Below are positions 1,105-54,830 of a DNA stretch of 64,000 bases, piece by piece. Below the pieces are notes generated by a model. The model made no database searches. It was not told the origin of the DNA and saw only the letters and a program-made list of their open reading frames with translations. The position numbers were made by a program, and so were the translations under genes. This DNA comes from Agromyces archimandritae (GTDB taxonomy: Bacteria; Actinomycetota; Actinomycetes; Actinomycetales; Microbacteriaceae): contig NZ_CP071696.1 of the NCBI RefSeq assembly GCF_018024495.1, positions 682,001 through 746,000 on the forward strand, written 5' to 3'. Within the stretch, counting starts at the first letter, position 1. Each line of letters opens with the position of its first letter.

Positions 1105-2874
1105 ATGTCAGCTGCCGATTCATCGCACCCGGATCGCGGATCGTTTCGCGCGCGGTTCCGCAGGGCCGCGGGGCCGACGCTCGTCATCAACGTCGCCGCG
1201 TTGCTCGCCGCCGTCACCGCGGCCGTCGCCGGCCCCAGCGCGCCGGGCACCACCGCCGCGGTCGTCGCGATCGCCGTGCTCGCCTGGGTCGAAGCCCGAC
1301 GCGGCGGCAAACTCGCCCGCCTGCTCGCCTCGCACGTCCTCGCACGCGCCCTGCTGATCACGAGCGCCGTCGCGCTCGCGGCGGTCGGAGGGAGCTCCCT
1401 GCTCGTGCCGGCGGTGATGCTCGGCATCTCCACGCTGCTCGAACCCGTGCTGAAGCGCATCCTGGCCGGGGCGGTGCCGTATGCGGCGCAGCTGCCCGGC
1501 ATCCGCACCCGGAATCACGAGCTCGCCTCGCCGGCCGGCGTCGCCGTCGGCAACATGGGCGGGCTCGCCGTCCTCTTCGTCACCGACCTGCTCGCGATCC
1601 GCTCCGACGCGGTCTCGTGGAGCGTCGCGATCCTCGCGGTCGCCTCGATGCTCTTCGCCGTCGTCCTCGCGGTCGACGGCGTGCAGCGCATCCGCGCCCG
1701 TCGCGTCGCCGACCGCACCGTGAACGACGCCATGCGCGCCTACGCCCCGGCCTTCGCCGTGCACTGGGATGCGGGGCCCGGCACCGGCTACCAGCTGGCG
1801 ATGTGGCTGCCCTACCTCGAGCGCATCGGCGAGCCGTTCGTCATCATCCTCCGCAACCAGGCGACCTTCGACGAGACCGTCGGCCTCACCGACCGGCCCG
1901 TGCTGCTCCGCAAGACCCACGCCGACCTCGACGACATGATCGTGCCCACGCTGCGAGCCGCGTTCTACGTCAACAACGCCGTCCGCAACGCCCAGTTCGT
2001 GCGCTTCGCCGAACTCTGGCACGTGCAGCTGAACCACGGCGAGAGCGACAAGGCCCCGAGCTACAACCCGGTGCTGCGCGCCTACGACCGCAACTTCGTC
2101 GCCGGGCAGGCCGCAGTGGATCGCTTCGCCGCGCACGGCCTGGCGACCGCGCCCGAATACTTCGAGATCATCGGCCGGCCCCAACTCGAGCACGTGCGTC
2201 AGGCCGACGGGCCGCTGCCCGCCGTGCCCACCGTGCTGTACGCGCCGACGTGGGCCGGATTCAACGCCGACTCCGCCTACAGCTCGCTCGGCGTCGGGCC
2301 CGAACTCGTCACCCAGCTCGTCGAACGCGGCTGCCGGGTGCTGTTCCGGCCGCACCCCTACACCGACCGCTCCCCCGAGCTCGCGGCCGCCGCGGACACC
2401 GTGCGGGCGCTGCTCGAAGCCGACGAGGCGAAGACCGGCATCGGGCACGAGTTCGGCGAACGCGTCGCCTCCGAGCTCACCATCGCCGAGTGCTTCAACC
2501 TCGCCGATGCGCTCGTCTCCGACGTGTCGAGCGTCGTGCCCGACTTCCTGTTCTCGGGCAAGCCCTTCGCGATCTCGACGATGCTCGCCCCCGCCGAGGA
2601 GTTCATCGACGGGTACGCGATCGCCGCCGCCGGGTATGTGTTCGAGCCGACGCCGGAGAGCATCCGCGCCGCCCTCGACGACATGCTCGGCGTCGACACG
2701 AAACAGGCCGCCCGAGCCGTGGCCAAGGAGTACTACCTCGGCGGCGAATCGCCCGAATCCGTCTCGGCGCGCTTCATCGAGGCCGCCCGCGAGGTGATCG
2801 CGATGCCGAAGCCGCCCGCGATCGAAGCCGCTCGCGAAGCCGACCACGCGAGCGCACGGGGAGAAGGACGATGA
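1105..2874 (+). CDS. Membrane-anchored CDP-glycerol glycerophosphotransferase-family protein (first of a pair)
   Basis: 589 residues. The first ~200 residues carry about four hydrophobic segments (near 24-60, 90-115, 145-160 and 172-196). The rest is a CDP-glycerol:poly(glycerophosphate) glycerophosphotransferase domain with the family signatures LNHGESDK, YAPTWAGF, FRPHP and a late SDVSSVVPDFLFSGKP. TagF-type enzymes use two histidines in such HG and PHP motifs to transfer polyol phosphate from a CDP-polyol. It overlaps the following acetyltransferase by an ATGA junction, so the two are cotranslated. It is clearly paralogous to the gene at 3710: both share the LNHG and APTWAGFNAD blocks and both have a hydrophobic N-terminal half. 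The polymer and the CDP donor are unknown; chain polymerase or priming enzyme are both possible. Confidence 0.85.
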   Translation: MSAADSSHPDRGSFRARFRRAAGPTLVINVAALLAAVTAAVAGPSAPGTTAAVVAIAVLAWVEARRGGKLARLLASHVLARALLITSAVALAAVGGSSLLVPAVMLGISTLLEPVLKRILAGAVPYAAQLPGIRTRNHELASPAGVAVGNMGGLAVLFVTDLLAIRSDAVSWSVAILAVASMLFAVVLAVDGVQRIRARRVADRTVNDAMRAYAPAFAVHWDAGPGTGYQLAMWLPYLERIGEPFVIILRNQATFDETVGLTDRPVLLRKTHADLDDMIVPTLRAAFYVNNAVRNAQFVRFAELWHVQLNHGESDKAPSYNPVLRAYDRNFVAGQAAVDRFAAHGLATAPEYFEIIGRPQLEHVRQADGPLPAVPTVLYAPTWAGFNADSAYSSLGVGPELVTQLVERGCRVLFRPHPYTDRSPELAAAADTVRALLEADEAKTGIGHEFGERVASELTIAECFNLADALVSDVSSVVPDFLFSGKPFAISTMLAPAEEFIDGYAIAAAGYVFEPTPESIRAALDDMLGVDTKQAARAVAKEYYLGGESPESVSARFIEAAREVIAMPKPPAIEAAREADHASARGEGR

Positions 2875-52748: not shown

Positions 52749-54830
52749 ATGCCCGTTCCCCCAAACGCGACCCATCCTGTTCAGAACCGACGCCCGATCG
52801 GCGAGATCGAAGGCCTTCGCGGACTCGCCCTCACCCTCGTCGCCCTCTTCCATCTGTTCGGAAACGGGCGGGTCTCGGGCGGTGTGGACGTCTTCCTCTT
52901 CGTCTCCGGCTTCCTGCTGACGCTCTCGCTCGCACGCCGGGCCGTCTCGGGTGCGCCGGCCGCGCTCGCACAGCGCTACGGGCGCACTCTCCTCAGGCTC
53001 ACCCCGGCCGCCCTCGTCGTCCTCATCGCGACCGCGATCATGGTCGTCACCGTGCTTCCGAAGTCGGGTTGGGAGCAGAGCGGCCGGGAGATCATCGCCT
53101 CCGCGCTCTACTTCGAGAACTGGGAGCTCATCTCTTCCCAGCTTGCCTACGGGGCGGCGGGGCCGATGACGAGCCCGCTTCAGCATTTCTGGTCGCTGTC
53201 GATCCAGGGCCAGTTCTTCCTCGTCTGGCCGCTGCTCATCACGGGGCTCGTCCTCCTGGCCCGGCGCGTCAGGAGGGATCCCCTCACCGCCGTGGCGATC
53301 CTCACGGGCATCGCGACCGCCGCGTCCTTCGCCTATGCCTGGACGCTGAACGCGTACGCGCCCGACATCGCCTACTTCGATTCCTTCGCCCGGTTCTGGG
53401 AGCTCGGCGCCGGCGCTCTGCTGGCGCTCGCCATGGGGCGCCTGCCCCACGCGTCCGCCCTCATGCGTTCGGTGCTCGGATGGGCGGGCCTCGCGCTCAT
53501 CGTCGCCTCCGGCTTCGTCGTCGACGGAGCGACGTCCTTCCCCGGACCGCTCGCCCTGCTTCCCGTCGCCGGGGCCGCGCTCGTCATCGTCGCGAGCGGT
53601 TCGCCGACGAGACTCGGCGCCGACCGCTTCCTCGCCCTGCGGCCGATGCGATTCGTCGCGCGGATCTCCTATCCGCTCTACCTCTGGCACTGGCCCATCC
53701 TGATCGGGTATCTGGCGATCCGCGGCTACGAGCGGGTCGGCCTCCTCGGCGGTGCGGCCGTCTTCGCGCTCTCCGTCGCCGTCGCGTGGGCCACGCAGCG
53801 CTTCGTCGTCGAACCGATCCTCGACCGGCGCGGAAGCATCAGCGTGCGGCGAGCGCTCATCGCCCCGATCACGGCGATCGCGGTGATCGCCGCCGTGACC
53901 GCCGGCGGCGTCGCCGGCGTCCAGCACCAGACGGCCCGACAACAGGCGGCCGTCGACGCACTGGCCGCATCGAACCCCGAGTGCCTCGGCGCGGCGGCCA
54001 TGGATCCCGCTACCCGGCCCTGCGACAATCCGTCGCTCGCCGGCAAACTGTTCCCCGCCCCGAACGCGATCTCCACCGAGAGCGACAACCGTCCCGAGTG
54101 CTGGGCCGGCGAAACCTCGCACGAGTTCAACGTCTGCACCGTCGGCCCGGAATCGGGATACGAGCGGCATGTGCTCGCCGTCGGCGACTCCCACAACAAC
54201 ACCTTCGTCGGTGCCTACGAACGCATCGCGGAGCAGATGAACTGGCGCATCGACATCGCCGGGCATGCGTTCTGCTACTGGACGGCGGCCGAGCAGCCCG
54301 TCCAGTCGCCGGCCGGCGCCGCCGCTTGCGCGTCGTGGAAATCGGCGCTGGAGGAGCACATCGCGCAGAGCACCGAGGTCGATGCGTACATCGTCACGCA
54401 CTCCCGGTACTCCGCCGTGACGGTGCCCGAGGGCGAGGACCGGCACGAGGTCGTCGTCGAGGGCATGGTCGAAGCATGGTCTGGACGCCCTGATCCGGCT
54501 GCCCCGATCATCGCGATCATCGACAACCCCCGGTATCCGAACGACACCAGCGCGTGTGTCGAGCAGTGGGGGCTCGACGCGATCTCCGAATGCCCAGTCG
54601 TCCCACGCTCGGTCGGGCTCCGCATCGACGACGGCCAGCGCGATGCTGCCGCTCGCTCGGCGAACGCCCACGTGATCGACCTGACCGACTTCTACTGCAC
54701 CGAGACGGAGTGCCCCCCGGTGATCGGCAATGCCGTGGTCGCCGGCGGCTGGTCGCACCTGACGGGGACGTTCGCGAAGACGCTCGCACCGTACATCGCC
54801 GAGCAGGCGGCCGCGATCCTCGACCGCTGA
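52749..54830 (+). CDS. OafA-type O-acyltransferase with variant SGNH domain (copy 3)
   Basis: 693 residues. Acyltransferase-3 membrane domain to ~380: EGLRGLALTLVALFHLFGNG (R-x10-H) and GGVDVFLFVSGFLLTL. External C-terminal domain with VLAVGDSHNNTFVGAYER, so the serine is present, but the late block reads AGGWSHLTGTF: the His remains and the Asp three residues before it, present as FDQNH and FDASH in the other two copies, is Gly. It may use another acid or act as a non-hydrolysing transferase. The start at 52749 follows from the domain layout; the frame is open upstream through the GT4 gene. Confidence 0.88.
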   Translation: MPVPPNATHPVQNRRPIGEIEGLRGLALTLVALFHLFGNGRVSGGVDVFLFVSGFLLTLSLARRAVSGAPAALAQRYGRTLLRLTPAALVVLIATAIMVVTVLPKSGWEQSGREIIASALYFENWELISSQLAYGAAGPMTSPLQHFWSLSIQGQFFLVWPLLITGLVLLARRVRRDPLTAVAILTGIATAASFAYAWTLNAYAPDIAYFDSFARFWELGAGALLALAMGRLPHASALMRSVLGWAGLALIVASGFVVDGATSFPGPLALLPVAGAALVIVASGSPTRLGADRFLALRPMRFVARISYPLYLWHWPILIGYLAIRGYERVGLLGGAAVFALSVAVAWATQRFVVEPILDRRGSISVRRALIAPITAIAVIAAVTAGGVAGVQHQTARQQAAVDALAASNPECLGAAAMDPATRPCDNPSLAGKLFPAPNAISTESDNRPECWAGETSHEFNVCTVGPESGYERHVLAVGDSHNNTFVGAYERIAEQMNWRIDIAGHAFCYWTAAEQPVQSPAGAAACASWKSALEEHIAQSTEVDAYIVTHSRYSAVTVPEGEDRHEVVVEGMVEAWSGRPDPAAPIIAIIDNPRYPNDTSACVEQWGLDAISECPVVPRSVGLRIDDGQRDAAARSANAHVIDLTDFYCTETECPPVIGNAVVAGGWSHLTGTFAKTLAPYIAEQAAAILDR

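What the first reader, a model, noticed from the sequence alone, without database searches (positions are those of the whole stretch)
1105..54830. Wall glycopolymer super-locus with five CDP-glycerol-type polymerases in four architectures
Glycerophosphotransferase domains occur at 1105 and 3710 (membrane-anchored pair), 7623 and 34442 (fused to GT2) and 12712 (fused to a HAD protein). One CDP-polyol synthase (30957), one ABC exporter, one flippase, two ligase-like proteins, three SGNH acyltransferases and an LCP enzyme surround them. No TagO/WecA or TagD is present. This suggests several distinct phosphate-containing polymers sharing precursors, beyond the classical tag/tar layout.
Basis: partly seen in the sequence, partly recalled or inferred. 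Interest (0 to 1): 0.7.

Follow-up and report, generated by a model that had tools for sequence, protein, structure and literature searches.

The report
Hib-type capsule polymerase in Agromyces wall locus
An actinobacterium of the genus Agromyces carries, among its cell-wall polymer genes, what looks like the same three-in-one enzyme and precursor enzyme that Haemophilus influenzae type b uses to build its capsule, which suggests that this machine can also build ribose-ribitol-phosphate teichoic acids in Gram-positive cell walls.

Summary
The five glycerophosphotransferase (PF04464) domains are real and keep a histidine pair. Calling them CDP-glycerol enzymes does not fit this genome: no TagD was found (its two CTP_transf_like genes read as NadD and CoaD) and no TagA, but there is an IspD-SDR fusion of the Bcs1 (CDP-ribitol synthase) kind at 30957. 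The "TagF fused to a HAD protein" at 12712-15807 is a full-length relative of the solved Hib capsule polymerase Bcs3 (E 1e-182). All 16 active-site residues compared, from its three enzymes, are identical; the SH3b polymer-binding domain is missing. In five other Agromyces loci the Bcs3-type gene lies near bcs1, tagGH and two Wzy_C genes. In three other genera the same block surrounds a GT2-TagF polymerase instead (partly so in two more); this window holds all three polymerase types. A LicD/FKRP-like protein fused to a methyltransferase is the commonest neighbour of bcs1 (12 of 16 loci). Best reading: a modular ribitol-phosphate teichoic acid locus, one product being a ribosyl-ribitol-phosphate polymer like that of Hib. 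The 2023 Bcs3 paper left open whether Gram-positive Bcs3 homologues lie in teichoic acid clusters; this one appears to. No chemistry was tested.

The parts
12712..15807 (-). P0001, Bcs3-type three-enzyme polymerase: ribitol-phosphate transferase (about 1-370), HAD phosphatase (about 375-590), PRPP ribofuranosyltransferase (about 600-1000)
   Evidence: phmmer to PDB 8a0c/9h50 (Bcs3), residues 9-993, E 1e-182; 16 of 16 compared active-site residues identical (alignment read); 14 of the 16 columns invariant in P0001 and 12 relatives
30957..32336 (+). P0006, IspD + SDR fusion, CDP-ribitol synthase of the Bcs1 kind
   Evidence: Pfam IspD 163.8 bits and adh_short 106.5 bits; best PDB hit 6xhp, named ribitol-5-phosphate cytidylyltransferase 1, E 4e-36; NCBIfam D-ribitol-5-phosphate cytidylyltransferase 163.5 bits, just under its 166 cut-off
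29308..30919 (+). tagG-tagH type ABC exporter (permease 29308-30189, ATPase 30173-30919), directly before bcs1
   Evidence: PF01061 and PF00005; same order tagG-tagH-bcs1 in L052, L053 and L171
34442..37588 (-). P0005, GT2 + TagF-type polymerase (motif QTFHGHPFK)
   Evidence: PF00535 and PF04464 275 bits (scanned as frame 34442-37765); C-terminal part to TagF 3l7i E 5e-46; of 6 family genomes with this two-domain type in the printed rows, 5 have bcs1, within about 3 kb
7623..10262 (+). P0004, GT2 + TagF-type polymerase (motif FLQHGVIKG)
   Evidence: PF00535 and PF04464 128.6 bits; full-length relatives in 7 of 150 family genomes, own included, 4 of them with bcs1
1105..2874 (+). P0002, protein with hydrophobic N-terminus and Glyphos_transf C-terminus (motif NHGESDK)
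   Evidence: PF04464 36.5 bits; 44% identical to P0003 over 83%
3710..5416 (+). P0003, same layout (motif NHGDSGK)
   Evidence: PF04464 36.3 bits; model pLDDT 87.1, pTM 0.84; Foldseek top UDP-GlcNAc 2-epimerases E 1e-8, TagF 3l7k E 3e-6 at rank 41
40155..41699 (-). LicD (FKRP-like) domain fused to a methyltransferase; candidate CDP-ribitol user
   Evidence: only LicD-type PDB sequence hit is FKRP, E 1.3e-6; Foldseek top hit FKRP 6kak E 3.5e-10; D162, D163, D164, D166, D221 invariant in 43 aligned proteins; near bcs1 in 12 of 16 distinct loci
17755..20348 (+). two Wzy_C (O-antigen ligase/polymerase-like) proteins, 17755-19065 and 19062-20348
   Evidence: PF04932 67.2 and 44.7 bits; both in all five Agromyces comparators
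11104..12657 (-). GT2 protein downstream of P0001
   Evidence: PF00535 126 bits
15882..17582 (-). GT61 protein upstream of P0001
   Evidence: PF04577 62 bits
41884..46052 (.). UDP-galactopyranose mutase (41884-43071 +), GlfT2-like galactofuranosyltransferase (43104-45032 +), epimerase-like protein (45078-46052 -)
   Evidence: PF03275 277 bits, PF19320 149 bits; relatives in some comparator blocks; the epimerase name is by sequence look only
54839..56155 (-). LytR-CpsA-Psr (LCP) protein, candidate wall ligase
   Evidence: PF03816 77.3 bits

Best explanation
This is a ribitol-phosphate, not glycerol-phosphate, wall polymer locus of an Agromyces. P0006 reduces ribulose-5-phosphate and couples it to CTP to give CDP-ribitol. 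P0001 works like Hib Bcs3: it adds ribofuranose-5-phosphate from PRPP to the chain end, removes the 5-phosphate, and adds ribitol-phosphate from CDP-ribitol, so that a ribosyl-ribitol-phosphate (type II teichoic acid) chain grows in the cytoplasm on an undecaprenyl-type primer. The TagGH-type exporter moves it out and an LCP enzyme joins it to the wall. The two GT2-TagF fusions (P0004, P0005) make further sugar-ribitol-phosphate chains from the same CDP-ribitol. The polymerase seat in this block is exchangeable between species and this strain has three occupants. Shown here: homology, conserved active sites, absence of recognisable TagD and TagA, gene linkage. Inferred: substrates of each enzyme, the polymer itself, primer, export and wall attachment.
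For: P0001 matches Bcs3 full length with H96, G99, K101, H233, D386, K548, S678, R679, D680, S707, R708, R712, E818, T825, E874, S884 all identical (16 of 16; numbering and roles from PMC10299916), including Gly at the place said there to tell ribitol- from glycerol-phosphate transferases. One CDP-polyol synthase of Bcs1 layout; of the other three IspD-model matches one is a strong stand-alone IspD, one reads as GlmU and one is under the cut-off. No TagD. Of 50 loci with a full-length Bcs3-type gene, 7 have a fused IspD-SDR in the flanks held (up to 10 kb each side; 4 Agromyces, Leucobacter, Pseudomonas, Pseudoxanthomonas), 27 any IspD-family gene, 20 a TagH-like ATPase. Block conserved in five Agromyces comparators. 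GT2-TagF types go with bcs1: 8 of 12 genomes against 14 of 150 overall, p 2.4e-7; own genome left out 7 of 11 against 13 of 149, p 1.7e-6.
Against: No activity or polymer structure was tested. P0001 lacks the SH3b polymer-binding domain of Hib Bcs3. P0005 has Pro, the glycerol-type residue, at the discriminating place, and so do its four relatives beside bcs1; 4 of 12 TagF-type rows from other bcs1 genomes even have the WHG[TIV]P form usual in TagD genomes. P0006 scores just under the ribitol cytidylyltransferase cut-off. In the window P0001 and P0006 are 15 kb apart. 23 of 50 Bcs3-type loci show no IspD-family gene in the DNA held (five of these hold about 10 kb or less). Many of the 50 are near-identical gut MAGs, so the counts are not independent. 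An NTP-transferase with a CDP-alcohol transferase lies in another locus, so another CDP-alcohol cannot be excluded.
Confidence: 0.7

Rival explanations
1. One reading: the five proteins are CDP-glycerol-dependent and make several poly(glycerol phosphate)-based polymers.
For: Pfam name of the family; P0005 carries the TagF-like Pro at H+3; one two-domain P0005-type protein, G051, is in a genome with TagD.
Against: No TagD and no TagA in the 99.8% complete genome. P0001 and 12 relatives have the ribitol-type Gly. P0005 and four relatives beside bcs1 have FHG[YH]PFK, whereas 16 of 22 rows from TagD genomes have WHG[TAI][PM]LK; the split is not clean, see evidence against the best explanation.
Confidence: 0.07
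2. P0001 is a true ribofuranosyl polymerase, but its product is not the Hib repeat: another linkage, another pentitol, or a short linker between primer and main chain.
For: No SH3b domain; 41-68% identity among the 12 aligned relatives leaves room for other acceptors; the same block carries other polymerases.
Against: All 16 compared active-site residues are identical to Bcs3.
Confidence: 0.25
3. P0004 and P0005 transfer a sugar-phosphate rather than a polyol-phosphate, as I recall for GgaB of B. subtilis, and only P0001 and perhaps the LicD protein use CDP-ribitol.
For: GT2-TagF layout as in GgaB (recalled, no call); neither has the ribitol-type WHxxG form.
Against: Statistical and physical linkage to bcs1.
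Confidence: 0.2
4. The LicD-methyltransferase (40155-41699) is the principal ribitol-phosphate transferase of the block, decorating a galactofuran-containing glycan, and the TagF-type polymerases are later additions.
For: Near bcs1 in 12 of 16 loci, including G079 and G102, which have bcs1 but only one weak PF04464 hit each; FKRP, its closest solved relative, uses CDP-ribitol (PMC4873967 passages); Glf and GlfT2 alongside in the window.
Against: FKRP is the only LicD-type sequence hit among solved structures here, so the match cannot tell ribitol from choline or other donors; absent beside bcs1 in 4 of 16 loci; a Wzy_C gene is nearly as frequent (11 of 16), so the lead is small.
Confidence: 0.25

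Closest known systems
Hib capsule polymerase Bcs3 with CDP-ribitol synthase Bcs1 (PMC10299916)
   Same: Domain order CroT-CrpP-CriT, active-site residues, companion IspD-SDR fusion, ABC exporter
   Different: Gram-positive wall locus with an LCP gene and a PNPT elsewhere in the genome; no SH3b domain; further TagF-type polymerases in the same locus
Classical tag/tar wall teichoic acid loci (layout recalled)
   Same: TagGH-type exporter, LCP protein, TagF-fold transferases
   Different: No TagD, no TagA found; CDP-polyol synthase is an IspD-SDR fusion; polymerases fused to GT2 or to a ribosyltransferase
TagF-like capsule polymerases with fused glycosyltransferase (Cps3D; PMC11666461, passages seen)
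   Same: Glycosyltransferase plus TagF domain in one chain, as in P0004 and P0005
   Different: Cps3D uses CDP-glycerol; these co-occur with a CDP-ribitol-type synthase and have FHG[YH]PFK or FLQHGVIKG in place of WHGTPMK
FKRP (LicD family, CDP-ribitol-dependent; PMC4873967, passages seen)
   Same: LicD fold and aspartates, beside a CDP-ribitol-type synthase
   Different: Bacterial, fused to a methyltransferase, donor untested
Ribofuranosyl transferase 7shg
   Same: Aligns with the HAD and ribosyltransferase parts (residues 380-814)
   Different: Match starts after the CroT part and is weak (E 2e-7)

Membership tests
Bcs3-type (CroT-CrpP-CriT) polymerase | Three domains in one chain in that order | tested here: met
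   Residues 9-993 align with Bcs3 chain residues 5-1009
Bcs3-type (CroT-CrpP-CriT) polymerase | CroT H96, H233 and ribitol-type G99 | tested here: met
   H100, H233, G103 in P0001; invariant in 13 of 13 aligned proteins, P0001 included
Bcs3-type (CroT-CrpP-CriT) polymerase | CrpP D386 nucleophile and K548 | tested here: met
   D383, K545; 13 of 13
Bcs3-type (CroT-CrpP-CriT) polymerase | CriT D680, E818, E874 and PRPP pocket residues | tested here: met
   D666, E803, E859 and S664, R665, S693, R694, R698, T810, S869 in P0001; among the 13 aligned, S869 is Thr in 11 and S664 is Ala in 1
Hib Bcs3 itself | SH3b polymer-binding domain and C-terminal helices | tested here: not met
   P0001 ends at residue 1031 and its alignment stops at chain residue 1009; the next regions of Bcs3 (1037-1115 and beyond, passage) have no counterpart. 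Filed as a variant, not as Bcs3
Bcs3-type (CroT-CrpP-CriT) polymerase | Polymerises from PRPP and CDP-ribitol | not testable with these tools
   Needs purified protein
Bifunctional CDP-ribitol synthase (Bcs1) | IspD-family cytidylyltransferase fused to SDR reductase | tested here: met
   same fusion near Bcs3-type genes in 7 of 50 loci
Bifunctional CDP-ribitol synthase (Bcs1) | Reaches a curated ribitol-5-phosphate cytidylyltransferase cut-off | tested here: inconclusive
   163.5 bits against 166
Classical tag/tar poly(glycerol-P) locus | TagD | tested here: not met
   PF01467: two genes, read as NadD and CoaD; TIGR01518: 0 in own genome, over cut-off in 8 of 150 family genomes
Classical tag/tar poly(glycerol-P) locus | TagA (PF03808) | tested here: not met
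   0 in own genome; rings in 7 of 14 control genomes
Classical tag/tar poly(glycerol-P) locus | A PNPT (TagO/WecA type) besides MraY | tested here: met
   PF00953 at C1:557620-558846, outside the window; which of the two PNPTs is WecA-like is judged by neighbours only
TagF-like transferase (P0002, P0003) | GT-B fold with the two histidines and D-x-S-S | tested here: met
   H305, G306, H412, D466, S468 invariant in 42 sequences, S469 nearly so; GT-B type model of P0003
TagF-like transferase (P0002, P0003) | Closest fold is TagF | tested here: inconclusive
   Foldseek ranks UDP-GlcNAc 2-epimerases first, TagF at rank 41
LicD/FKRP-like transferase (40155-41699) | LicD fold and conserved aspartates | tested here: met
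LicD/FKRP-like transferase (40155-41699) | CDP-ribitol as donor | not testable with these tools
   Only linkage to bcs1

The most novel reading that the evidence does not exclude
Agromyces builds a type II wall teichoic acid with the repeat of the Hib capsule (ribosyl-ribitol-phosphate) using a Bcs3-type three-enzyme machine. The same CDP-ribitol pool feeds two GT2-TagF polymerases and a bacterial FKRP-like LicD transferase, and species of the family swap the polymerase inside a largely fixed exporter-synthase block, so the cluster works as a cassette system for ribitol teichoic acids.
Probability: 0.45. Interest if true: 0.72.

Novelty: new variant of a known kind. Interest (0 to 1): 0.56.

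Why it matters
The Bcs3 paper says that polymerases for complex wall teichoic acids had not been identified and that future studies would show whether Gram-positive Bcs3 homologues are part of teichoic acid clusters (PMC10299916, discussion). This locus gives a concrete, testable Gram-positive case with candidate partner genes in one place, three candidate ribitol-phosphate polymerases and a possible bacterial counterpart of FKRP. If confirmed, some non-pathogenic Gram-positives could carry wall polymers resembling the Hib vaccine antigen, which would bear on natural cross-reactive antibodies, and their enzymes would be useful tools for making ribitol-phosphate polymers in vitro.

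Tried and rejected
CDP-glycerol as the shared donor: rejected for lack of TagD in a 99.8% complete genome.

The Pro/Gly rule at H+3 as sole guide to donor: it fits P0001 and, as printed, TarL (Gly; the catalytic His reads N in that crystal chain) and TagF/Cps3D (Pro). But P0005-type proteins beside bcs1 in genomes without TagD have Pro (G025, G085, G148, G056, own), further bcs1 genomes (G040, G056, G114) have WHG[TIV]P domains, and Pro, Met and Gly all occur in TagD genomes. I did not use it to assign P0005.

Mutual exclusion of bcs1 and TagD: 14 and 8 of 150 genomes with no overlap, but no overlap has a chance of 0.45 anyway; not claimed.

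P0003 by sequence against PDB: no hit at E up to 1. TagF was not among the 50 rows of the VIA-align second look.

A further CDP-polyol synthase among the IspD-model matches: C1:2766255 reads as GlmU; C1:771291 is under the cut-off and was not looked at further.

Literature on wall polymers of Agromyces: the open library gave no structure. Searches: 'teichoic acid + Agromyces + ribitol' (1 paper), 'teichoic acid + ribofuranos + actinobacteri + ribitol phosphate' (0), 'cell wall glycopolymer + teichoic acid + Microbacteriaceae' (0), 'ribosylribitol + teichoic acid' (1 review on capsule oligosaccharides, listing only), 'Agromyces + cell wall + teichoic' (7, listing; one of them, PMC3196553, passages: it cites a 1994 paper on lipoteichoic acids of Agromyces). 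Subscription journals are mostly not held, so a published structure may well exist. Searches for later work on Bcs3 homologues in Gram-positives (and, capped at 10 of 737 listed, 99) showed me no paper placing one in a teichoic acid cluster; PMC11127046 on pentofuranose addition was listed but not read.

A count named four short loci from a hand-made list; one search counted five. A Fisher table kept the total at 150 after leaving the own genome out; redid it with 149.

Full report
What the window is. The window is C1:682001-746000 of a 3.45 Mb single-contig genome. Two genomes of its genus, G171 and G190, coincide in coordinates with the Agromyces italicus and A. soli records, so the genus is Agromyces. 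Gene starts in the window come from a simple codon-composition script of mine and are approximate.

Observation. Five PF04464 domains lie in the window and a sixth at C1:2966790. Pfam confirms the GT2-TagF fusions at 7623 and 34442, Glyphos_transf at 1105, 3710 and 12712, two Wzy_C proteins, three acyltransferase-SGNH proteins, the ABC exporter and an LCP protein. The 'flippase' is unconfirmed. Six PF04464 hits put this genome among the top 3 of 150 family genomes.

The donor. The genome has two PF01467 genes. By neighbours and sequence they read as NadD (after a proA-like gene) and CoaD (after a recG-like gene) (these gene names are my reading). The TagD model TIGR01518 finds nothing in this genome and passes its cut-off in 8 of 150 family genomes. 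TagA is absent. The IspD model has four matches: a stand-alone one at C1:2592016 (204 bits), the window's IspD-SDR fusion (166 bits), a partial one that reads as GlmU (41 bits) and one under the cut-off. The best solved relatives of the fusion are ribitol-5-phosphate cytidylyltransferases. Its layout is that of Bcs1, described as the Hib CDP-ribitol synthase in PMC10299916 (passages); Bcs1 itself was not aligned here. So the locus has a likely CDP-ribitol supply and no visible CDP-glycerol supply.

The HAD fusion. P0001 aligns over residues 9-993 with the sequence of crystallised Hib Bcs3 at E 1e-182, and only weakly with TagF or TarL. Using residue roles from PMC10299916 (outline, sections 9, 10, 11 and 14 and passages read) and the printed alignment, 16 of 16 named active-site residues are identical in P0001. 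They span all three enzymes: the ribitol-phosphate transferase with its ribitol-type glycine, the HAD phosphatase, and the PRPP ribosyltransferase. In P0001 and 12 relatives 14 of the 16 columns are invariant; one has a single Ala and one is Thr in 11 of 13. P0001 stops before the SH3b domain.

Relatives and linkage. A scan of one genome per species with an alignment of 13 Bcs3-type proteins gave 56 loci; 50 carry a full-length match and six partial ones were dropped from the counts. Within the DNA held (up to 10 kb each side, often less), 27 of 50 have an IspD-family gene, seven of them the IspD-SDR fusion; 20 of 50 have a TagH-like ATPase of at least 140 bits; 32 of 50 have one or the other. 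Ten of the 20 stand-alone IspD-family genes were checked: 6 pass the D-ribitol-5-phosphate cytidylyltransferase cut-off; 4 score best as IspD but below its cut-off. 23 of 50 show no IspD-family gene (five of these hold about 10 kb or less), among them both Listeria loci. Many loci are near-identical gut MAGs, so these are not independent counts. Two Gram-negatives (Pseudomonas citronellolis, Pseudoxanthomonas broegbernensis) have the fusion directly before the Bcs3-type gene. In the genus, 6 of 60 genomes have the full-length gene and 3 more match only in the HAD/ribosyltransferase part. In the sampled family only the own genome has it, 1 of 150; 25 others match in the TagF part alone.

The block. 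The window's genes were compared with 18 fetched stretches, 16 of them distinct (L129/L169 and L098/L172 are pairs from one genome each). In five Agromyces loci (A. italicus, A. soli, two A. mediolanus strains, G182) the Bcs3-type gene lies with two Wzy_C genes, tagG, tagH, bcs1 and the LicD-methyltransferase. In G085 and G148 much of this block (bcs1, tagGH, Wzy_C, LicD-methyltransferase, Glf, GlfT2, epimerase) surrounds a P0005-type GT2-TagF polymerase, and in G001 a P0004-type. G025 (P0005-type) and G064 (P0004-type) show part of the block in the stretch fetched; G056 has bcs1 and a P0005-type polymerase but none of the rest. G079 has the block and G102 most of it, with only one weak PF04464 hit each. 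Of the 13 other family genomes with full-length bcs1, the bcs1 neighbourhoods of eight were fetched.

Co-occurrence. Full-length bcs1 is in 14 of 150 family genomes. Of 12 genomes with a two-domain P0005-type or full-length P0004-type protein in the printed rows have bcs1 (p 2.4e-7; own genome left out 7 of 11, p 1.7e-6). For P0005-type alone it is 5 of 6, for P0004-type alone 4 of 7. The lists are cut, and the genomes share ancestry, so the p-values overstate the case. All five P0005-type genes with bcs1 lie within about 3 kb of it; of the four P0004-type ones, G001 and G064 lie within 4 kb, the own one 21 kb away and G016 on another contig (coordinates).

Against the reading. P0005 and its four relatives beside bcs1 have Pro where the Bcs3 paper expects Gly for ribitol, and 4 of 12 TagF-type rows from other bcs1 genomes have the WHG[TIV]P form that is usual in TagD genomes (16 of 22 rows there have WHG[TAI][PM]LK). 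For these domains linkage and residue disagree. I favour linkage because there is no TagD, but a sugar-phosphate donor is open. P0002, P0003 and the sixth protein share an HG[ED]S motif; P0003 models as a GT-B fold with UDP-GlcNAc 2-epimerases ranked above TagF. Their donor and role, perhaps priming, are not known.

The LicD protein. The protein at 40155-41699 has a LicD domain whose only LicD-type match among solved structures is FKRP, by sequence (E 1.3e-6) and at the top of the fold search (E 3.5e-10), fused to a methyltransferase. FKRP transfers ribitol-5-phosphate from CDP-ribitol (PMC4873967, passages). It is near bcs1 in 12 of 16 distinct loci; it is absent from the Leucobacter, G056, Pseudomonas and Pseudoxanthomonas loci. 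It may be a bacterial ribitol-phosphate transferase; the donor is untested.

Mechanism, step by step. Shown: genes, domains, residues, linkage. Inferred: CDP-ribitol synthesis by P0006; repeat assembly by P0001 as in Bcs3 (ribose-5-phosphate from PRPP, dephosphorylation, ribitol-phosphate from CDP-ribitol); parallel chains by P0004 and P0005; start on a lipid from the second PNPT at C1:557620; export by TagGH; wall attachment by LCP; O-acylation by the SGNH acyltransferases.

Novelty. Full-length Bcs3 homologues in Gram-positives were noted in PMC10299916, which left their place in teichoic acid clusters to future study. I saw no later report in the open library, which misses most subscription journals. 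The locus is a new variant of a known kind: a Bcs3-type machine without SH3b in a Gram-positive wall locus with exchangeable polymerases.

Noticed in passing
L017 (C1:2963442-2972200): A second envelope-polymer locus: GT2 proteins, CDP-alcohol phosphatidyltransferase, the sixth Glyphos_transf protein (motif NHGESDK like P0002), a second ABC exporter and an NTP-transferase. It might make another CDP-alcohol and feed P0002/P0003.
   Followed up: partly
L053 8441-14546: A. soli has two copies of the bcs1-type fusion, one on each side of the Bcs3-type gene.
   Followed up: no
L096, L103: Two Gram-negatives (Pseudoxanthomonas broegbernensis, Pseudomonas citronellolis) carry a bcs1-bcs3 type pair.
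   Followed up: partly
L135, L136, L137 (genomes G176, G204, G191): Three Agromyces genomes match P0001 only in the HAD/ribosyltransferase part, which suggests other ribofuranose-adding proteins in the genus.
   Followed up: no
window 39955-40158: A 67-residue DUF6752 protein precedes the LicD-methyltransferase; several Leucobacter relatives listed have DUF6752 within the same protein.
   Followed up: no
window 41884-45032: UDP-galactopyranose mutase and a GlfT2-like galactofuranosyltransferase in the wall locus of an actinobacterium outside the mycolic-acid group (the latter recalled).
   Followed up: partly
window 37822-39807: Protein with six LGFP repeats beside the polymerase P0005; possibly wall-binding.
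   Followed up: no
window 27220-29157: DUF6541 protein (492 bits) of unknown function between the Wzy_C genes and tagG.
   Followed up: no
genomes G079, G102 (L169, L170): bcs1 and LicD-methyltransferase but only one weak PF04464 hit each: what uses their CDP-ribitol is unexplained unless the LicD protein does.
   Followed up: partly
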